Below are positions 62 through 29,811 of a stretch of 32,431 bases of DNA, one piece after another. Under the pieces are notes generated by a model that was not told the DNA's origin, did no database searches, and was given only the letters and a program-made list of their open reading frames with translations. This stretch comes from an uncultured Candidatus Melainabacteria bacterium (lineage in GTDB: Bacteria > Cyanobacteriota > Vampirovibrionia > Gastranaerophilales > Gastranaerophilaceae): positions 1 through 32,431 of the forward strand of contig CAMDYM010000013.1 of assembly GCA_945910425.1 (NCBI GenBank), read 5' to 3'. How positions within the stretch are numbered: position 1 is the stretch's first letter; each line of letters begins with the position of its first letter. Position numbers and translations under genes: made by a program.

Positions 62-844
62 ATGAAAAACGGTTTTACATTAGCTGAAGGTGCTACGCAC
101 ATAACTTCGCTACCAATGGCAGCAAAATTTGGTTTTACATTAGCTGAAGTTCTTATCACTCTTGGAATAATAGGCGTAGTTGCGGCAATGACTATACCTA
201 CTTTAATTGCAAATACTAATGGAGCAAAATATCGTTCGCAATATAAAAAGACCCTTTCTTCACTAAATCAAGCCGTAAAAATGAATATTGCAAACCACGA
301 TTTTGACTTTGGCTCAGCAGGTCAAGCCTGTAACAGAACAGATAATCCCGAATCTGTAATGTCTGTTTGTGCAATATTTAACGGAGCATTAACAGGAGTC
401 ACAATATTTGACTACACTCAACTAAAAACCCCTAAAAATACCCTCTATTATCAAGATTTATATAATAAAGGAACAACCTCAGATACTGAAATTAAAGAAA
501 GACATGTTGATTTATACTACTACCAATTAAAAGACGGCTCCTTCTTCGCATTCCATTCCCCAACCATAGAATGTACCTTAGGAAACAAAACACTTGAACA
601 ACGTATGACAGAAACAGAATTCCACAGATACTGCCTTGGGTGGATTGATGTAAACGGTGTAAACTTACCAAATAAAGAGGTTCGCTGTAAAGACGGTAAA
701 TCTCATACAAAAGATATCGGAACATCCTGTATTGTCCCTAATGACCCAAGCCATATGGCAGATGTTTTTCCTGTAGTATTTTATGACGGAACAGTAGCCC
801 CGGGCTCCGCTGCCGCCAGATACGTGCTAAACACAACAAAATAA
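62..844 (+). CDS. Prepilin-like protein with duplicated N-terminal cleavage motif
   Basis: This 260-residue protein is a type IV pilin-like or type II secretion pseudopilin-like protein, expected to be cut by prepilin peptidase and anchored by its N-terminal helix. The motif GFTLAE occurs twice, at residues 4-9 and 24-29. Only the second is followed directly by the hydrophobic helix (VLITLGIIGVVAAMTIPTLI), so cleavage probably follows Gly24, leaving Phe25 at +1 and Glu29 at +5. The remainder looks like a soluble globular domain with several Cys, and I do not recognise it. The upstream ATG is kept because AAGGGA lies just before it and the two motifs are in frame. The extra 20 codons look like an insertion (see the repeat entry). 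No pilus assembly gene is nearby. Substrate and role are unknown. Confidence 0.85.
   Translation: MKNGFTLAEGATHITSLPMAAKFGFTLAEVLITLGIIGVVAAMTIPTLIANTNGAKYRSQYKKTLSSLNQAVKMNIANHDFDFGSAGQACNRTDNPESVMSVCAIFNGALTGVTIFDYTQLKTPKNTLYYQDLYNKGTTSDTEIKERHVDLYYYQLKDGSFFAFHSPTIECTLGNKTLEQRMTETEFHRYCLGWIDVNGVNLPNKEVRCKDGKSHTKDIGTSCIVPNDPSHMADVFPVVFYDGTVAPGSAAARYVLNTTK
71..149 (+). repeat. 19-bp direct repeat bounding an in-frame 60-bp insertion
   Basis: GGTTTTACATTAGCTGAAG occurs at 71-89 and exactly again at 131-149, 60 bases apart, with 41 bases of unrelated sequence between. The period is a multiple of three, so the reading frame is kept and the prepilin motif GFTLAE is encoded twice. The other two prepilin-like genes in the window have only one copy. 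Confidence 0.9.
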
Positions 845-4457: not shown

Positions 4458-5171
4458 ATGAAACGAGGTTTTACATTAGCAGAGGTTTTAATCACTCTCG
4501 GCATTATCGGGGTTGTTGCGGCTATGACAATCCCGACATTGATATCAAAAATCCAAAAACGCACTATAGAAGCTCAGATTAAAGAAAATTATGCAATGCT
4601 TGCTCAAACAATGAGATTTGCCGAATATGATGATATTGGGAGTATGCCAATCAGCGCAAACAGCACTGCAAGCATGAAAAAATGGTTTGAACAATTTCTT
4701 GCACCGCATTTAAAAGTTGAACAAGTTTGTTTTCAAACCGCAGGTTGCTGGCATAAAAAAGGTGTTGTTAAAACATTAAACAATGGAACACCAGAATTTG
4801 AAACAAAAGTCGGAGAAAATGACAGTACAATCGGTTGGGGAACTATGACATTTCGAACAGCTAAAGGTGCATATTTTAATATGGATGGAAGTTCTCCAGG
4901 AACTACACAAAGCCTTTTCGGAGTTAATTCAAAAGTTCCGACATTACAATTTTATTTTGATGTAAACGGGGATAGACGACCTAACAAAATCGGCAAAGAT
5001 ATTTACATTATGATTTATGACCCGGATAAAGGGTTTGTTCCCGCAGGAAGCGATAGAACTTTAGCTCAAATCAAACAAAATTGCGAAACAGGGAACGGCT
5101 ACTGGTGCTTAACCTACGTAAAAAATAACGGTTGGGTAATACCAAATTCTGTTTGGAAACGTAAGAAGTAA
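4458..5171 (+). CDS. Prepilin-like protein
   Basis: This 237-residue protein has the prepilin signal MKRGFTLAEVLITLG at its N-terminus. Cleavage is expected after Gly4, giving Phe5 at +1 and Glu9 at +5, and the hydrophobic helix runs to about residue 30. The rest is a soluble domain with four Cys (QVCFQTAGCW and NCETGNGYWC), probably disulfide pairs. The segment FYFDVNGDRRPNKIGKDIYIM resembles the calcium-type or structural loop FDVNG seen in related proteins; the third prepilin has VDINGNEKGPNRFGRDFFYL at the same place. GGGAG precedes the ATG. It is divergent from a small XRE gene. Whether it builds a pilus, a secretion pseudopilus or another surface structure cannot be told. Confidence 0.88.
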   Translation: MKRGFTLAEVLITLGIIGVVAAMTIPTLISKIQKRTIEAQIKENYAMLAQTMRFAEYDDIGSMPISANSTASMKKWFEQFLAPHLKVEQVCFQTAGCWHKKGVVKTLNNGTPEFETKVGENDSTIGWGTMTFRTAKGAYFNMDGSSPGTTQSLFGVNSKVPTLQFYFDVNGDRRPNKIGKDIYIMIYDPDKGFVPAGSDRTLAQIKQNCETGNGYWCLTYVKNNGWVIPNSVWKRKK

Positions 5172-6519: not shown

Positions 6520-8253
6520 TTAGTGCTGTTTGTAAACCTTTTTAGAATTACTTTCAATATATGGAGTATCTATTTCAAATACGTGGATTCTTCCCGGTCC
6601 AAGTTCAAGTGCGATTTCTCCTTTTGAAACCTGGAATTTACTTTCCTGTCCGTATGACGGTAAAAGATTTTTCAGTTCTTGATTTTCTTTCAGGGTCGGA
6701 ACATTAACTATCGCAGCAACAGGTCTATCTACGTTTTTATTTGCAAGAACAAGAAGAGTTTTTCCTTGTCTGTGGCGGGCAAACGAGATAATTTGGTCTT
6801 GTTTATCTTTTTTCTTATCAAGCATTATATATGAACCGCGTTTTAAAACATCAGCGTAATCATCTCTGAACTTTAACGCAGCAGTCATAAATTCACCGAT
6901 TTTAGGGTTATCTCCGCCCGGTTTTCTTGAAAGGTTGAATATATCCAATTTACCGGGGTGTGCTGTCATATAGTTAAAATCAGTATCTGATTTTTCAAGA
7001 TACTTTCCTCTGTAGCTGTAATCATACTTGTCCCCTGATTGGAATCCGTCAACAAAATACGGATTTAACATAGGCAATGTAACCTGCAAGCCTGTTGTCA
7101 AATTACAATAAGCTTCTCCACCGTGATACATCGGAGAAATATCATCGTGAGTTGCAAATGAACCGATTAAAGATTTACCTCTTTCAACTCTATATGATAA
7201 ATTAAGATTTTCTCTCACATAATCGTGTAAATCTTTTGCCGTAGTCCATTCATGGAAAATATGATACTGACCGTAATAAGCATCAAAGCCTGCACGAAGT
7301 GAATCTTCAGGTCTGTCATAAGGCATATTTGCCTGAGGAGAAGCATCTTCATAAGTATAAGACTCAGCAAGCCATGCAAACTCAGGATTACGTTTTCTTG
7401 AATACGGGATAATAATATCCCAGAACTCAACAGGTTTAGCTCTTGCAACATCGGCTCTTATACCATCAACTCCCGCATCTATCATCATATCAACAAATTT
7501 TCTGTGGTACTCTAAAAGTTCCGGGTTTAAAGTTCTTTTTCCTTCATCTTCCCAAGGTTGAAACATCCTGATATCTTCCCATCCTTGAGGAGTTTTAGCT
7601 AAACCGTAACGGTCTTTTGCCATTAATTCAGGCTTTGCCAAATATAAATCATACGACGCGCAGCTCGGCATATCAACCATAACCCTTATATCTCTGTCGT
7701 GGCACGCATCAACAAATGCTTTAAATTGTTCCTGAGGTGAGCGCGGATCTTTTTTATCTATTAATACAGGATCAAGTTCAAGCATATCTAACGGAGAATA
7801 AACTGAACCCGCCGTTCCCATTGCATTATTTTTTCCGGGAGGATTAATAGGCAGAACATGAAGGGTATTAAAACCTTGCGCCTTAACCTCATCAAGACGA
7901 TTTATAGCGTTTAAAAATGTTCCGTGCTGTTCATTTCCATCAATATATTCATTGTTGTTTGTATCTTTTGCATTAAATGTTCTTGGAACTATTGCCAAAA
8001 TCTTTGCGCTGTTTGTTAAAAATAAGGTTCTCAAATCATTTTTATAAGGCTTATGAACAACACTTGTAACCTCGGCAGGCTTTGATACAGCAGGAGCATT
8101 AATCTTAGCCATATTATCCAAATATTGAGTAAGCAGATTTGAACTATTATGAGCTTGAGGATTTACTTGTACTTGCACATCCTGTTTTTTAGGAGCAAGC
8201 GGCTGATAAACACTTACGGCTTTAGTTATTAAATTTGTAGAAACATTCATCAT
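6520..8253 (-). CDS. GH13-family alpha-glucan enzyme
   Basis: A 577-residue alpha-amylase-superfamily protein, probably acting on alpha-1,4-glucans. After about 75 low-complexity residues rich in Gln, Asn and Pro comes the (beta/alpha)8 barrel. The catalytic set is intact: nucleophile Asp268 in GIRAD, acid Glu297 in FAWLAES, and Asp370 in FATHD. Conserved region I is unusual: VDMPSCASYD has no Asn-His where DVVxNH is expected. Residues 97-108 (DTNNNEYIDGNE) fit a calcium-binding EF-hand loop. A beta-rich C-terminal domain ends in GRIHVFEID. No signal peptide is seen, so it is probably cytoplasmic. GGAGG lies nine bases before the ATG, inside the end of the preceding gene, so the two are probably cotranscribed. 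The exact reaction is not determined. Confidence 0.85.
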   Translation of the reverse strand: MMNVSTNLITKAVSVYQPLAPKKQDVQVQVNPQAHNSSNLLTQYLDNMAKINAPAVSKPAEVTSVVHKPYKNDLRTLFLTNSAKILAIVPRTFNAKDTNNNEYIDGNEQHGTFLNAINRLDEVKAQGFNTLHVLPINPPGKNNAMGTAGSVYSPLDMLELDPVLIDKKDPRSPQEQFKAFVDACHDRDIRVMVDMPSCASYDLYLAKPELMAKDRYGLAKTPQGWEDIRMFQPWEDEGKRTLNPELLEYHRKFVDMMIDAGVDGIRADVARAKPVEFWDIIIPYSRKRNPEFAWLAESYTYEDASPQANMPYDRPEDSLRAGFDAYYGQYHIFHEWTTAKDLHDYVRENLNLSYRVERGKSLIGSFATHDDISPMYHGGEAYCNLTTGLQVTLPMLNPYFVDGFQSGDKYDYSYRGKYLEKSDTDFNYMTAHPGKLDIFNLSRKPGGDNPKIGEFMTAALKFRDDYADVLKRGSYIMLDKKKDKQDQIISFARHRQGKTLLVLANKNVDRPVAAIVNVPTLKENQELKNLLPSYGQESKFQVSKGEIALELGPGRIHVFEIDTPYIESNSKKVYKQH

Positions 8254-8254
8254 A

Positions 8255-10780
8255 CTATGCTTCCTCCTTAATCGGTTCAGGCTTTTTCATTCTACCCATA
8301 AAGAATTGAGATATTAAAGTTACCCCAATAACCGCAGCTCCGAGTTTTCCAAAAATAGAGAACCACTTACCGCTATTATACTTATTATTTGCCAGCTTAT
8401 ACATAAATTCGTTTGTAGCAGCACCAAGCCTGTTAAATCTTTCACTGGATGTTGCTTTATGTTCAATACCATCTACCAACACTTGAGGGAATGCAAAACT
8501 ACGTTCTCCGCCGAGTTTTTGAAGTGAATCTACTCTATAAGCCTGAAAATCACTAAAGAATACCGAACTTTTAATTCTTTCTGCAATATCAGGATGTACA
8601 TCACCAAACATTAATTTCATGGCATCACTGAAATAATTACTGTCATTTGGCATTGATACACGTTCATGAGCAGGTATTTTACCGTAATAATCATACTGAA
8701 CTTTTCCGTTAACGACTTTTATATCGCCTCTATCAGATAAATCAGGAGTTAAATTACGTCGTTGGTATAATTTTACCGCAAAATCAGCCGTATGACCTTC
8801 CATAAGAACAGATTTCACAAGTTCAACCATTTCTTCTTTCACTTCTCTAGGTCTTAAGTGACCGATAACACCATTAATAGCTTTATCGTGAGCTATTTTA
8901 TAATATGTGTTAATAATTTGCAGCAAGCGGTAGAAGGAACTTCTTACACCCGTAATTCTTTCATTCATAAACGAATGATATAAACCCTTTATACCCGTAT
9001 TACCTTTATCTCCAAACCCCAGAAGAGAATCGACTGTTCCGTCTAAACCTAACTTCCGCAACTCATCTGCTGCTGCTTTAAATGAAGAATCTACCAAATC
9101 ATGATAAGAATGAGAGTCTTTTTCTAACGGTGAGGTTTTTGAATAAACAACAGATAAAAGTTTTTCCATTTTTGTAACAAGCTCAGCGCATGCATTTTTA
9201 TCTGCTACAATATCTTCAATTTTTGCTCTTAATACATCACCTGCAACTTTGCTATCAAGTCTTGCTTTTGCAACCTCTTCAGGTGAAAGTTTAAGAGCTT
9301 TAATAAATTCATCAGCAGTCTGATTCCAAATATCTGCTAAAATAGTTTCCTGATCTTGCGCAACTTTTATATGTGAATATCTGTCTAATACTGAAGTTTT
9401 TGCTCTAAGAGTATCAAATATTGAACCAATACTTCTTAACTGATTTGCAATATCCTCTGTTAAAACTCTTGATTTTTGCGTTTTGAATGCTTGTTCCAAA
9501 GGTGAATCTTCACCCTTTTGTCCCTGATGAATAAGAGAATCTAAGAAGAAATTCAAACGTCTTGCCTGAATAGACTTAGGGTCTTGAGCTACAAACTCAT
9601 TAATCCTGTTTGTTAACAATTCCTGCATTGCAACAGAATGAGAAGAAAATTCTTTATATTCACCACCCACTAAACCTTTATCACTTAAGAAATTAAGCAT
9701 CGTACTGTTATCAGGAATCAGTTTTGCCAAGTCTTCTTCTGATAATCCCGCAGGCTGCAAGATATTTTTAAAGGCTTCCCGAACATTATCCAACGTTGCT
9801 GTTGTAACACTAAAATGCTCCCCAACAGGCATGATTGAACGTAAATCTTCTGATACAGATTTCACAACAGCAGGATCTTGACCTTGTGTAATATTTGCTA
9901 CAACCTGATTAAACAAATCCTGAGTTAACGGTTTTTGCAGATTTTCTTCAATCAAACCTTCTAAAGCGCGTTGTCTTGGTTTAAAATCGTATTTACTGAT
10001 TTCTTCTCCAAAATGCGTTAATAACTCTTCACTTTGCTTATCTTTTCTATCATGAAGAAACTTAGAAACAGGACCTTCTAATCTGTTACAAATTAAAGCA
10101 CTCAAAAGCGGGGTTGCAAAACCTGATGTCAACATCCACATTGTATTATTCTGCAACGCAATTTTACGCATTTTTTCCTGAATATAATCTCTTCTGTTCG
10201 GAATATCCTTTGGAACATGTAATCTGTCGCCAATTTTATTGATTTCTTTATCTGAATATAAATCCCAAGGAATAAATTGATGATCGGAGAAGACCATTTT
10301 CTTTCTTCCGTAATTATCTTCATATTTTTGTCTTATATCAAATCCGTGAACAAGTCTTGCAGGAAGTTGCAAGAAAAGTTTAGGCCAAATATTCATTGCT
10401 CCGAAAAACGCTGTTAAACCTATAAACTCAAACCATTTTGTCATCGGAGTAGCTTTTCTGGTAAACAAGTATGAAGCTATAGCAAGCCCGCCAAGCTTCA
10501 TTCCGACATCATTAAGTTTACCCAATTCATGGTCGTTAGCTTTTCCGCTTATTGCATGCCTGAAAGCATTCCAGTCATATTTTAAACCTTTTGAAATTTC
10601 TGACGGCATATCAAATAAACTCGGACGAACCAGTTTGCCGTTACTTGGCAGCGGTTTAATAAATGTACGATTTGCCAATTCTTTATTTACATCAAAATTT
10701 TTAACCGCTTTATCTGCGTTATACTGTCTTGTCGCAGGATGTGAATTTATATATGCCTGAATTAAATTATCTGTTCTCAT
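8255..10780 (-). CDS. Large uncharacterised membrane protein, paralogue of the next gene
   Basis: I do not recognise a named family for this 841-residue protein. Hydrophobic segments lie near residues 92-140, at 212-232 (MWMLTSGFATPLLSALIC) and at the C-terminus (GKLGAAVIGVTLISQFFMG). Between them is a long, mostly helical, soluble region of several hundred residues. The ends resemble the 348-residue protein encoded just upstream. LPARLVHGFDIRQKY matches its YPIKLATGIDTELPY, WDLYSDKE matches WDMLYGDPKK, and the last helix and KKP tail are alike. The ATG follows the upstream gene's stop directly, and the GH13 gene starts two bases after its end, so the three form one operon. Role unknown; a large cell-envelope scaffold is one possibility. 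Confidence 0.75.
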   Translation of the reverse strand: MRTDNLIQAYINSHPATRQYNADKAVKNFDVNKELANRTFIKPLPSNGKLVRPSLFDMPSEISKGLKYDWNAFRHAISGKANDHELGKLNDVGMKLGGLAIASYLFTRKATPMTKWFEFIGLTAFFGAMNIWPKLFLQLPARLVHGFDIRQKYEDNYGRKKMVFSDHQFIPWDLYSDKEINKIGDRLHVPKDIPNRRDYIQEKMRKIALQNNTMWMLTSGFATPLLSALICNRLEGPVSKFLHDRKDKQSEELLTHFGEEISKYDFKPRQRALEGLIEENLQKPLTQDLFNQVVANITQGQDPAVVKSVSEDLRSIMPVGEHFSVTTATLDNVREAFKNILQPAGLSEEDLAKLIPDNSTMLNFLSDKGLVGGEYKEFSSHSVAMQELLTNRINEFVAQDPKSIQARRLNFFLDSLIHQGQKGEDSPLEQAFKTQKSRVLTEDIANQLRSIGSIFDTLRAKTSVLDRYSHIKVAQDQETILADIWNQTADEFIKALKLSPEEVAKARLDSKVAGDVLRAKIEDIVADKNACAELVTKMEKLLSVVYSKTSPLEKDSHSYHDLVDSSFKAAADELRKLGLDGTVDSLLGFGDKGNTGIKGLYHSFMNERITGVRSSFYRLLQIINTYYKIAHDKAINGVIGHLRPREVKEEMVELVKSVLMEGHTADFAVKLYQRRNLTPDLSDRGDIKVVNGKVQYDYYGKIPAHERVSMPNDSNYFSDAMKLMFGDVHPDIAERIKSSVFFSDFQAYRVDSLQKLGGERSFAFPQVLVDGIEHKATSSERFNRLGAATNEFMYKLANNKYNSGKWFSIFGKLGAAVIGVTLISQFFMGRMKKPEPIKEEA

Positions 10781-11827
10781 CTAACCCACCACACATTCTT
10801 TCTTTTTATCCATCACATCTTCTGCCGTAAGTTTTGACGGTTTCTTAGTTATATGAAGGGTATTTAAAACTCCGCCAACCGTTGATAAAACCGCTAACCC
10901 GATTACGGCTTTACCGGCATGTTTATCAACCATTTTTACTGCATTTTCCTTACCGTGGTATAACTCTTTTACAGCTTCTTTAAAACTTCTGCCAAAAATT
11001 TTCAAAGAATGCCCGAACTCTTTACCCTTCCAGAATTTCATAGTTGCACAGTTAAAATACTCAAGCCATGCATCCTGAAATGCCAAACAAACACCCGTTG
11101 CTGCCCACATAAAGGTTGAAATACTTTTTGCAACTTTTGATTTTACCAAAACTTCTTTATAAATAGGTTTTACTTCCTGATCGGAATCATTTAAATCTTT
11201 ACCCAAACCGACTTTTCTTGCAATTTTGTCAAATCGGAAGTTTCTTTTTTCTCCCTTTTTCGGGTCGCCATAGAGCATATCCCAGTATGTAAAATCAACA
11301 CTCTCCCCAACCTTATGGTACTCAATGGATTTCAAATCAAAATCATTCGGATGCTCCTGCAAACGATTATTAACTTTTGCATAAGGAAGTTCGGTATCAA
11401 TACCTGTTGCAAGTTTTATCGGATAATTAACCAATGTTTTTGAAAATCTTTTAAATAAACCGTAAAACAACACACCTAACGCCATTTTATTTCCAAGGTG
11501 CGAAGCCTCTTTTGCACCAAAATGAGAAAAGAACGGATTTGCAGAATTAAATATCGCCATAAGGGTTAAACTACCCATAACATTTGGGAAATTACCCATT
11601 GTTAAAAATTCGTAGAAGTTAGAGTTTTTACTGCCCTTAATCCCTCTTGCCGGATATTGAGTAAAAGCTTTTGTAAATTTTTCCAAACCAATTCGGGTAC
11701 GAGTCGATAAATTATTTTGCAACAAAGTATCATGCTCATAAGGTAATTCAGGCGCCTTACCTGCCTCTTCTTTTCGAGCCTGAAATGTATGATTCCCGTT
11801 TATACCCTTGCCTATAGCTGATATCAT
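10781..11827 (-). CDS. Uncharacterised membrane protein, short paralogue
   Basis: A 348-residue protein with no family I can name. The N-terminus (MISAIGKGINGNHTFQARKE) is short and polar. Hydrophobic stretches lie near residues 75-135, 232-255 and 303-325. It shares its layout with the 841-residue protein downstream: a PxKLxxGIDxxxxY motif, then WDMLYGDPKK, and a C-terminal AVIGLAVLSTVGGV helix followed by KKPS. The long middle domain of the larger protein is missing. GGAG lies six bases before the ATG. It is the first gene of a three-gene operon ending in a GH13 enzyme. Confidence 0.75.
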   Translation of the reverse strand: MISAIGKGINGNHTFQARKEEAGKAPELPYEHDTLLQNNLSTRTRIGLEKFTKAFTQYPARGIKGSKNSNFYEFLTMGNFPNVMGSLTLMAIFNSANPFFSHFGAKEASHLGNKMALGVLFYGLFKRFSKTLVNYPIKLATGIDTELPYAKVNNRLQEHPNDFDLKSIEYHKVGESVDFTYWDMLYGDPKKGEKRNFRFDKIARKVGLGKDLNDSDQEVKPIYKEVLVKSKVAKSISTFMWAATGVCLAFQDAWLEYFNCATMKFWKGKEFGHSLKIFGRSFKEAVKELYHGKENAVKMVDKHAGKAVIGLAVLSTVGGVLNTLHITKKPSKLTAEDVMDKKKECVVG

Positions 11828-17160: not shown

Positions 17161-17748
17161 TTAAGCAAGCCATTCTTTTATATCGTTACTTAATTCTTGT
17201 TTTTTAGCTTCCGGATCTAAGCTGTCCAATCTTGCTTGTTTTTCCAAAGCTTCAAGATAAGAAGGTCTCTTTTCAACTTCAGAAACTACAAAATTTTCTG
17301 AAATTAACGGATCTCTTACAATTCTATATAAAAGTCTTCTGAAAGTTTCCGTATCAATCGGTTTATCTAAAGCAAAAAACTCTGTTGCAACTTTAGGACA
17401 TTTTCCGTCAAGTGTTACAAGCAGATTTTCTTCATCACCTGTATTTATCTTTTTTACAGAAACGGTAACTAATTTATCTTCAGGCCAAACATCTCTTGCA
17501 ACAAGAGATCTTGTTTCCGGTTTGCAATTTAAAAAGCTTTGAGTTTTACGTTCAGCTTGTTCATTAAGATCATTCATTGCTATTTTTAAAGCAACCATAT
17601 CTTCATGTACATATTCTGTATTTGAATACGGTCTGTCTTTACTTAAGTTATAATATAAATCTTTTGATGGTTTATCCAATTCAAATTTTAAAAGACCAAA
17701 TTGTGGTTGTTTATTGTTATTATTTAAAGAAACCGGTGCAACTTTCAT
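17161..17748 (-). CDS. Uncharacterised 195-residue protein upstream of nrdJ
   Basis: I cannot assign a family. The N-terminus MKVAPVSLNNNNKQPQFG is polar and Asn-rich, without a signal peptide. The rest is charged and soluble, with helical stretches (EDMVALKIAMNDLNEQAERK near residue 50) and a predicted strand-rich middle. AGGAGG lies nine bases before the ATG, a strong ribosome binding site. It is 26 bases upstream of nrdJ and is probably cotranscribed. A functional link to the reductase is possible but not shown. Confidence 0.7.
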   Translation of the reverse strand: MKVAPVSLNNNNKQPQFGLLKFELDKPSKDLYYNLSKDRPYSNTEYVHEDMVALKIAMNDLNEQAERKTQSFLNCKPETRSLVARDVWPEDKLVTVSVKKINTGDEENLLVTLDGKCPKVATEFFALDKPIDTETFRRLLYRIVRDPLISENFVVSEVEKRPSYLEALEKQARLDSLDPEAKKQELSNDIKEWLA

Positions 17749-29130: not shown

Positions 29131-29811
29131 TTATTTCCAAGGATAAGAATCGTCAATCTGCCAGCCTGCACGCTTAATACGTTCAGCACAATACCAACCT
29201 GTACCACTGTTGGAACACTCTGATTTTAGAGCCGAATCTGAGAGATTATACCCATAAGGCACAACACCTTTTCCGTTTTCAAGACGGGTAAGATAGAAAA
29301 AATCTCTTCCAAATCTGTTTGGACCTTTCTCATTACCATTAATATCTACGGCAATTATACTGCTCGAAACAGATATATTTCCTGAAGTCGCACCTGTAAA
29401 GACAATATATAAAATTCCATCCATAGTATAAAAAGGAAGTAAAATATTACCGCTGTAATCCCCGCCCATTCCTTGAGAGTCTCCGTTAGGGGATGAAACC
29501 CCTTTTTTATACATACATCGTGAATTATTACACAACTCAGCACCTTTAATATAAGGATTCCAATATGTTTTAAAATACATTTCAGAACCCATATTAAATG
29601 CATTATCGGGTTCGCCTAAATCTTCATAAGACAAGCGGTAAGCCTGATTTAAAATAGAAATAGCTTTTTGAAGCTTTGTTACGGTAACTTTCTTTTGATG
29701 AGCCGTTATCAAATTAGGAATAGTCATCGCTGCAACAACTCCGATAATCCCAAGTGTAATAAGAGTTTCTGCAAGAGTGAACCCAAATGTTTTATCTTTC
29801 ATCCTTTTCAA
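29131..29811 (-). CDS. Prepilin-like protein, TTG start
   Basis: This 226-residue protein has the prepilin signal KTFGFTLAETLITLGIIGVV. Cleavage is expected after Gly10, with Phe11 at +1 and Glu15 at +5. The soluble part has Cys pairs (AELCNNSRCMYKKGV and ECSNSGTGWYC) and VDINGNEKGPNRFGRD, both shared in pattern with the prepilin at 4458-5171. The start is a TTG at 29811 with GAGGA eight bases upstream; the ATG at 29802 has no room for a ribosome binding site. It is divergent from an XRE regulator and has a strong promoter in the gap. Function unknown beyond the pilin-like anchor. Confidence 0.87.
   Translation of the reverse strand: MKRMKDKTFGFTLAETLITLGIIGVVAAMTIPNLITAHQKKVTVTKLQKAISILNQAYRLSYEDLGEPDNAFNMGSEMYFKTYWNPYIKGAELCNNSRCMYKKGVSSPNGDSQGMGGDYSGNILLPFYTMDGILYIVFTGATSGNISVSSSIIAVDINGNEKGPNRFGRDFFYLTRLENGKGVVPYGYNLSDSALKSECSNSGTGWYCAERIKRAGWQIDDSYPWK

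What the first reader, a model, noticed from the sequence alone, without database searches (positions are those of the whole stretch)
6520..11827. Paralogous uncharacterised membrane proteins in an operon with GH13
The 348- and 841-residue proteins share a PxxLxxGxD motif, a W-D motif about 30-45 residues later, and a C-terminal AVIG helix with a KKP tail. The larger one has a helical domain of several hundred residues inserted between shared ends. Gaps of 0 and 1 base tie both to a GH13 enzyme, suggesting a joint role in glucan handling or in an envelope-associated structure.
Basis: partly seen in the sequence, partly recalled or inferred. Interest (0 to 1): 0.6.

Follow-up and report, generated by a model that had tools for sequence, protein, structure and literature searches.

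The report
Membrane anchors for a glucan enzyme
Two related membrane proteins of unknown family travel as one operon with an alpha-glucan enzyme in nearly every examined genome of a gut-dwelling, non-photosynthetic cyanobacterial order, and in a distant cousin one of them is fused to that enzyme, which suggests that these bacteria handle their storage sugar polymer at a membrane.

Summary
The finding is real. The three genes exist as described (348 aa, 841 aa, GH13; gaps 0 and 1 base). The window is from Gastranaerophilales (non-photosynthetic gut cyanobacteria). Profile comparison confirms that the 348 and 841 aa proteins share a homologous N-terminal domain of about 190 residues (hhalign E 2.5e-10; controls 0.06 or worse). 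The C-terminal AVIG/KKP resemblance is not conserved. The order 348-841-GH13 holds in 44 of 44 loci examined; each membrane protein occurs in 139 of 146 genomes of the order. The window's two membrane proteins pass no Pfam cut-off. The GH13 keeps its catalytic triad (40 of 40 rows) and has no hydrophobic export segment. A giant second GH13 ('c8') adjoins the operon in some lineages and co-occurs with it: 132 of 135 genomes with the operon, 0 of 7 without. In one genome of another order of the class, the 841-type domain and the GH13 are a single 1030 aa protein, next to a 348-type gene and c8. Best explanation: sister membrane proteins that tether a catalytically competent alpha-glucan enzyme to the cytoplasmic face of a membrane. 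Tethering is well supported; reaction and purpose are inferred.

The parts
10781..11827 (-). 348-aa membrane protein ('P348'), first gene of the operon
   Evidence: ORF; family in 139 of 146 genomes of the order; no Pfam match
11051..11743 (-). P348 N-terminal domain homologous to that of P841 (residues 29-259)
   Evidence: hhalign E 2.5e-10, controls
11396..11422 (-). P348 PxxLxxGxD motif (residues 136-144)
   Evidence: column counts
10856..10918 (-). P348 C-terminal hydrophobic helix (residues 304-324), followed by a basic tail
   Evidence: family-mean hydropathy
8255..10780 (-). 841-aa membrane protein ('P841'), second gene
   Evidence: ORF; family in 139 of 146 genomes of the order
10052..10651 (-). 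P841 N-terminal domain homologous to P348 (residues 44-243)
10337..10363 (-). P841 PxxLxxGxD motif (residues 140-148)
8366..10078 (-). P841 variable helical middle region (residues 235-805); pLDDT mostly 60-90 for residues 240-630
8294..8359 (-). P841 C-terminal hydrophobic helix (residues 808-829); the corresponding helix leads into the GH13 domain in the G314 fusion
6520..8253 (-). GH13 (alpha-amylase superfamily) enzyme, third gene, no hydrophobic segment
7450..7452 (-). predicted catalytic nucleophile D268
   Evidence: invariant in 40 of 40 rows; role from GH13 knowledge
7363..7365 (-). predicted acid/base E297
   Evidence: invariant in 40 of 40 rows; role from GH13 knowledge
7144..7146 (-). 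predicted third catalytic residue D370
   Evidence: invariant in 40 of 40 rows; role from GH13 knowledge
6523..6579 (-). conserved C-terminal tail (F)EIDTPxIE...KVYKQ(N/H); absent from the one full-length exported paralogue seen

Best explanation
P348 and P841 are sister membrane proteins, descended from one ancestral domain: three moderately hydrophobic helices around a soluble loop with the PxxLxxGxD...WD signature, plus a C-terminal membrane helix with a basic tail. They work together as an anchor for the GH13 enzyme, holding it at the cytoplasmic face of a membrane. The enzyme keeps its catalytic residues, so it probably cuts or transfers alpha-1,4-glucan chains of the cell's own glycogen-type polymer, together with the giant GH13 protein c8, encoded next to the operon in several lineages and elsewhere in this genome. 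Shown: homology of the N-domains, operon invariance, fusion in an outgroup, intact catalytic triad, co-occurrence with c8. Inferred: that the pair forms one complex, cytoplasmic side, glycogen as substrate, the reaction (transfer rather than hydrolysis is a guess from the nearest solved relative), and the physiological purpose.
For: N-domain homology, also seen directly by sequence profile: the P348 profile hits P841 N-domains in 10 genomes at E 5e-5 to 8e-3, and the P841 profile hits the outgroup P348 at E 6.7e-9. Same order and strand in 44 of 44 loci while flanks change (GH13 of L074, L101, L102 by tblastn). Gene gaps mostly -17 to +4. Fusion: in G314 (another order) one 1030-aa ORF carries the P841 N-domain, a hydrophobic helix plus SKTSRRRK, then a complete GH13, and starts 4 nt inside the preceding P348 homologue; c8 lies divergently beside it. 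Triad D268/E297/D370 in 40 of 40 rows. Operon GH13 lacks any hydrophobic segment, whereas its paralogue in G018 has a signal-peptide-like start and lacks the conserved tail. c8 strong (E<1e-50) in 132 of 135 operon-bearing and 0 of 7 operon-less genomes, Fisher p 6e-10, not corrected for phylogeny. GlgA in the genome, phosphorylase-like ORF.
Against: Only the C-terminal helix is strongly hydrophobic; helices 1-3 are marginal (median KD19 1.07-1.49), so the topology, and even spanning by helices 1-3, is unresolved. Loop charges give no clear inside/outside pattern. The fusion was seen in one genome; a second was looked for and not reached. No structure of the shared domain could be predicted. 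No direct evidence of substrate or reaction. The 7 operon-less genomes include incomplete ones (66 to 96% complete).
Confidence: 0.55

Rival explanations
1. Envelope polysaccharide route: the membrane pair forms an export or assembly site that moves an alpha-glucan made inside the cell to the surface (capsule-like), with the GH13 trimming or transferring chains at the entrance and the P841 middle domain outside the membrane.
For: Membrane helices, active GH13 and a large helical domain between hydrophobic helices 3 and 4; nearest solved relatives include maltosyltransferases and GlgE. Capsular alpha-glucan of mycobacteria leaves the cell by an unknown transport mechanism (PMC11046441, passages seen).
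Against: Four hydrophobic helices per protein are few for a transporter; no transporter-like match; no polysaccharide-export gene recurs in the flanks (neighbours clustered but not all annotated).
Confidence: 0.17
2. The GH13 and the membrane pair act on sugars entering the cell: a membrane-bound maltodextrin processing or sensing unit that works on imported starch fragments after exported amylases have cut them.
For: The genome also encodes two amylase-superfamily proteins with signal-peptide-like starts, one of them a 40% identical paralogue of the operon enzyme. Published inference that these gut bacteria ferment starch and glycogen (PMC3787301, PMC4040986, passages).
Against: No transport gene is conserved beside the operon. 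The operon is also present, fused, in another order, whose lifestyle was not checked.
Confidence: 0.15
3. The membrane proteins serve an unrelated envelope function, and the GH13 is merely translated from the same messenger.
For: The N-domain has no known function; no biochemical link exists.
Against: Conserved adjacency in 44 of 44 loci, the fusion protein, and co-loss with c8.
Confidence: 0.08

Closest known systems
GH13 maltosyltransferase of Thermotoga maritima (PDB 1gju)
   Same: Closest solved relative of the operon enzyme, profile E 2.2e-25; the RTxxAxxxxG start of the barrel, nucleophile region and acid/base region align.
   Different: Local matches only. The Thermotoga enzyme is not known to me to be tied to membrane proteins. 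Region I of the operon enzyme reads D-x-PSCAS; that this departs from the usual GH13 form is recalled, not from a call.
GlgE maltosyltransferases (PDB 3zss, 4u2y, 4u33, 5cgm)
   Same: Profile matches E 2e-15 to 8e-11 over the first half of the barrel up to the acid/base region.
   Different: Weaker than 1gju. The maltose-1-phosphate site was not tested.
SLC3A heavy chains (4F2hc, rBAT) of animals
   Same: From recall: amylase-like domain joined to a membrane helix and paired with another membrane protein.
   Different: From recall: they face outside and do not act as amylases, whereas here the catalytic triad is intact and the cytoplasmic side is predicted. No homology of the membrane parts was found or tested.

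Membership tests
GH13 (alpha-amylase superfamily) - operon enzyme | detectable alpha-amylase catalytic domain | tested here: met
   Alone: 18.3 bits against a cut-off of 22; in the genome search 22 bits with its neighbours in the frame, marked over the cut-off; profile against PDB GH13 enzymes E 2e-25 to 1e-5
GH13 (alpha-amylase superfamily) - operon enzyme | catalytic triad Asp, Glu, Asp | tested here: met
   D268, E297, D370 in 40 of 40 rows (the truncated L062 and the three loci whose ORF my picker missed are left out)
GH13 (alpha-amylase superfamily) - operon enzyme | activity on alpha-glucans | not testable with these tools
   needs an assay
GlgE (maltose-1-phosphate maltosyltransferase) | maltose-1-phosphate binding residues | not tested
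   residues known to me only from recall; the sequence match is weaker than to 1gju
DUF5063 (PF16702) - P841 | score over the family cut-off | tested here: not met
   16.5 bits against 27, over 60 residues of the variable middle region
P348/P841 as one new family | homologous N-terminal domain | tested here: met
P348/P841 as one new family | homologous C-terminal helix | tested here: inconclusive
   profile probability 0.4%; same relative place and hydrophobicity
P348/P841 as one new family | same fold of the shared domain | tested here: inconclusive
   models unusable there: pLDDT 32, and below 50

The most novel reading that the evidence does not exclude
A previously undescribed, lineage-wide alpha-glucan platform at a membrane: two sister membrane proteins, a tethered GH13 enzyme and a giant second GH13 (c8) form one machine, older than the order Gastranaerophilales, that builds, remodels or exports the storage polymer at the membrane rather than free in the cytoplasm. 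A short N-terminal F-x-G tag, invariant in 10 of 10 aligned c8 proteins, would help bring its parts together.
Probability: 0.25. Interest if true: 0.8.

Novelty: new variant of a known kind. Interest (0 to 1): 0.58.

Why it matters
Bacterial glycogen enzymes are usually treated as soluble; the 2024 review PMC11046441 gave no match for 'transmembrane', 'membrane-bound', 'membrane-associated' or 'anchored' in the held part of its text. A near-universal operon of a gut-living order that anchors such an enzyme to a membrane gives a first handle on two protein families without annotation and a concrete hypothesis about energy storage, or surface sugar, in bacteria known mostly from metagenomes. The natural fusion tells experimenters which two proteins to express together.

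Tried and rejected
Pairwise BLASTP of the two proteins: not significant. Further paralogues in the own genome: none with the P348 profile; with the P841 profile only one chance-level hit, E 0.51. Pfam on 26 P348 members: at most 3 members match any one family, best E 0.045. NCBIfam: nothing for P841, one chance hit (E 0.1) for P348. PDB by profile: P348 one hit E 0.88; P841 only helical-bundle matches, mostly designed proteins, E 0.016 or worse. Fold searches with the P841 model: Foldseek nothing at E 0.001 or below, VIA-align best Z 9.2 to a designed helical bundle, i.e. a common arrangement only; the low-confidence shared domain was barely tested. Relatives in viral contigs: none. First idea that the family is confined to Gastranaerophilales (131 of 132 matching genomes in the order; the other at E 0.008): dropped after one search showed strong P841 matches in 13 genomes of families f46 and f51 of the same class, plus 4 weak ones. 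BacA and the other genes upstream in the window: adjacent only in part of the loci (19 of 44 loci hold BacA), so not part of the system. First impression that GH13 was missing in 3 loci: an artefact of my ORF picker. Positive-inside topology: no clear signal. An iterative profile run of P348 that gathered P841 members by itself was not used as proof, because such runs can drift. Literature: searches; no listed title or abstract describes this operon, but only listings and found passages were seen.

Full report
WHAT WAS CLAIMED. Two uncharacterised membrane proteins (348 and 841 aa) in an operon with a GH13 enzyme share an N-terminal motif and a C-terminal helix, with a large helical insert in the longer one.

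THE GENES. All three ORFs are as described, on the minus strand in the order 348 aa (P348), 841 aa (P841), GH13 577 aa, with gaps of 0 and 1 base. The window is contig C13 of a 1.76-Mb, 96-contig genome. The three relatives found by name are entitled Candidatus Melainabacteria, Candidatus Gastranaerophilales and, probably a misnamed bin, Muribaculaceae. Pfam gives nothing for P348 and only a sub-threshold DUF5063 match for P841.

PARALOGY. Direct comparison is not significant. I built family alignments from the window and 42 other loci (L062 left out as a near-duplicate). hhalign aligns the N-terminal domains over 194 columns with E 2.5e-10, score 88.7, probability 96.8%. Controls (ten column shuffles, a reversed profile and five neighbour families against P348) gave scores of 24 or less and E 0.06 or worse. 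Independent sequence-profile support: the P348 profile hits the P841 N-domain in 10 genomes (E 5e-5 to 8e-3), and the P841 profile hits the P348 homologue of an outgroup genome (E 6.7e-9). The PxxLxxGxD and W-D motifs are conserved. The C-terminal AVIG and KKP are not conserved, and the profile match there is nil. Still, both families show four hydrophobic peaks in the same order, the last at the C-terminus, and the outgroup proteins show the same four. Only the last helix is strongly hydrophobic.

DISTRIBUTION. P348 is found in 139 of 146 genomes of the order and P841 in 139 of 146. In the phylum draw, 132 of 292 genomes match the P348 profile: 131 in the order and one doubtful at E 0.008. 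In the class draw, 209 of 289 match the P841 profile; outside the order there are 13 strong matches (9 in family f46, 4 in f51) and 4 weak ones.

SYNTENY. In all 44 loci I examined (window, 3 from the scan by name, 40 fetched because they had hits), P348, P841 and GH13 follow each other on one strand. GH13 appears as an ORF in 41 and by full-length tblastn in the other 3; in L062 it is cut by the contig end. Flanking genes change between genera. Gene gaps range from -32 to +48, mostly near zero. In a further genome, G010, the three follow each other up to a contig end; in G005 they lie at the ends of two contigs, which is compatible with adjacency.

THE GH13. Nearest solved relatives are T. 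maritima maltosyltransferase 1gju (profile E 2.2e-25), two alpha-amylases and the GlgE enzymes. D268, E297 and D370 are present in 40 of 40 rows. There is no hydrophobic segment. The own genome has two other amylase-superfamily genes, both with signal-peptide-like starts (judged by eye). One is 40% identical to the operon enzyme. Its full-length relative in G018 lacks the conserved tail of the operon enzyme, so that tail is specific to the operon form as far as one sequence can show. The genome also has GlgA and a 574-aa phosphorylase-like ORF.

A FOURTH PARTNER. A protein of about 1100-1400 aa (c8), with amylase-domain matches in 3 of 4 members tested and conserved D686, E740 and D909, directly follows GH13 in 9 of 44 loci and lies divergently beside P348 in one more; it also follows GH13 in G005. 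It is present in 137 of 142 genomes of the order (E 1e-5 or better), in the window's genome on contig C4 (ORF). Counting only strong matches (E below 1e-50), it is in 132 of 135 operon-bearing genomes and 0 of 7 operon-less ones (Fisher p 6e-10). The three exceptions are G026, G045 and G112. The test ignores shared ancestry, and some operon-less genomes are incomplete.

THE FUSION. In G314, a one-contig genome of family f46 in another order of the class, a P348 homologue (600683-601822) is followed, with a 4-base overlap, by one ORF of 1030 aa (601819-604911) that holds the P841 N-domain (E 1.5e-38), a short helical stretch, a hydrophobic helix with a basic tail, and then a full GH13 (E 4e-107) with the catalytic residues in place. 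A c8 homologue (596344-600411, opposite strand) is next door. In a 17-row tree the fused GH13 groups with the operon enzymes rather than with the exported paralogues; its branch is long and the tree tool warns of long branches meeting. The fusion places the GH13 directly behind the C-terminal membrane helix. By the positive-inside rule (established knowledge) its SKTSRRRK tail, and hence the enzyme, lies in the cytoplasm. This was seen in one genome only.

WHAT COULD NOT BE DONE. Fold search found only generic helical bundles for the middle region.

CONCLUSION. I conclude, at about 0.55, that P348 and P841 are a sister pair of membrane anchors for a catalytically competent alpha-glucan enzyme acting with c8. 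The tether is the best-supported step; substrate, reaction and purpose are inference. I found no description of it in searches (listings; passages of PMC3787301, PMC4040986 and PMC11046441).

Noticed in passing
window 17161-17748 (-); L170 6118-10314; L148-L167: A short N-terminal motif F-x-G, usually within residues 10-45, recurs in unrelated proteins of these bacteria. F and G are invariant in 10 of 10 aligned c8 proteins. In 400 kb of G018 the pattern [NSTIVK]xF[KTSQNER]G occurs near the start of 14 of 373 proteins, against 3 to 6 in later 30-residue bins. Possibly a sorting tag. The window's 195-aa protein starts with a looser version (PQFGLLK).
   Followed up: partly
window 62-844 (+), 4458-5171 (+), 29131-29811 (-): Three separate genes carry the type IV pilin-like start GFTLAE(V/T)LITLGIIGVVAAMTIP, so pilin-like proteins are scattered through the genome.
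   Followed up: no
L144 3-1436 (-); L161 7737-9209 (+): A paralogue of the operon GH13 with a signal-peptide-like start, 40% identical to the operon enzyme, in the own genome and in G018.
   Followed up: partly
L062: A contig labelled Muribaculaceae bacterium carries this operon at 80% identity for P348; probably a misbinned Gastranaerophilales contig.
   Followed up: no
L170 11376-12335 (-): A 319-aa protein near c8 in the own genome also starts with a leader ending in VSFGN.
   Followed up: no
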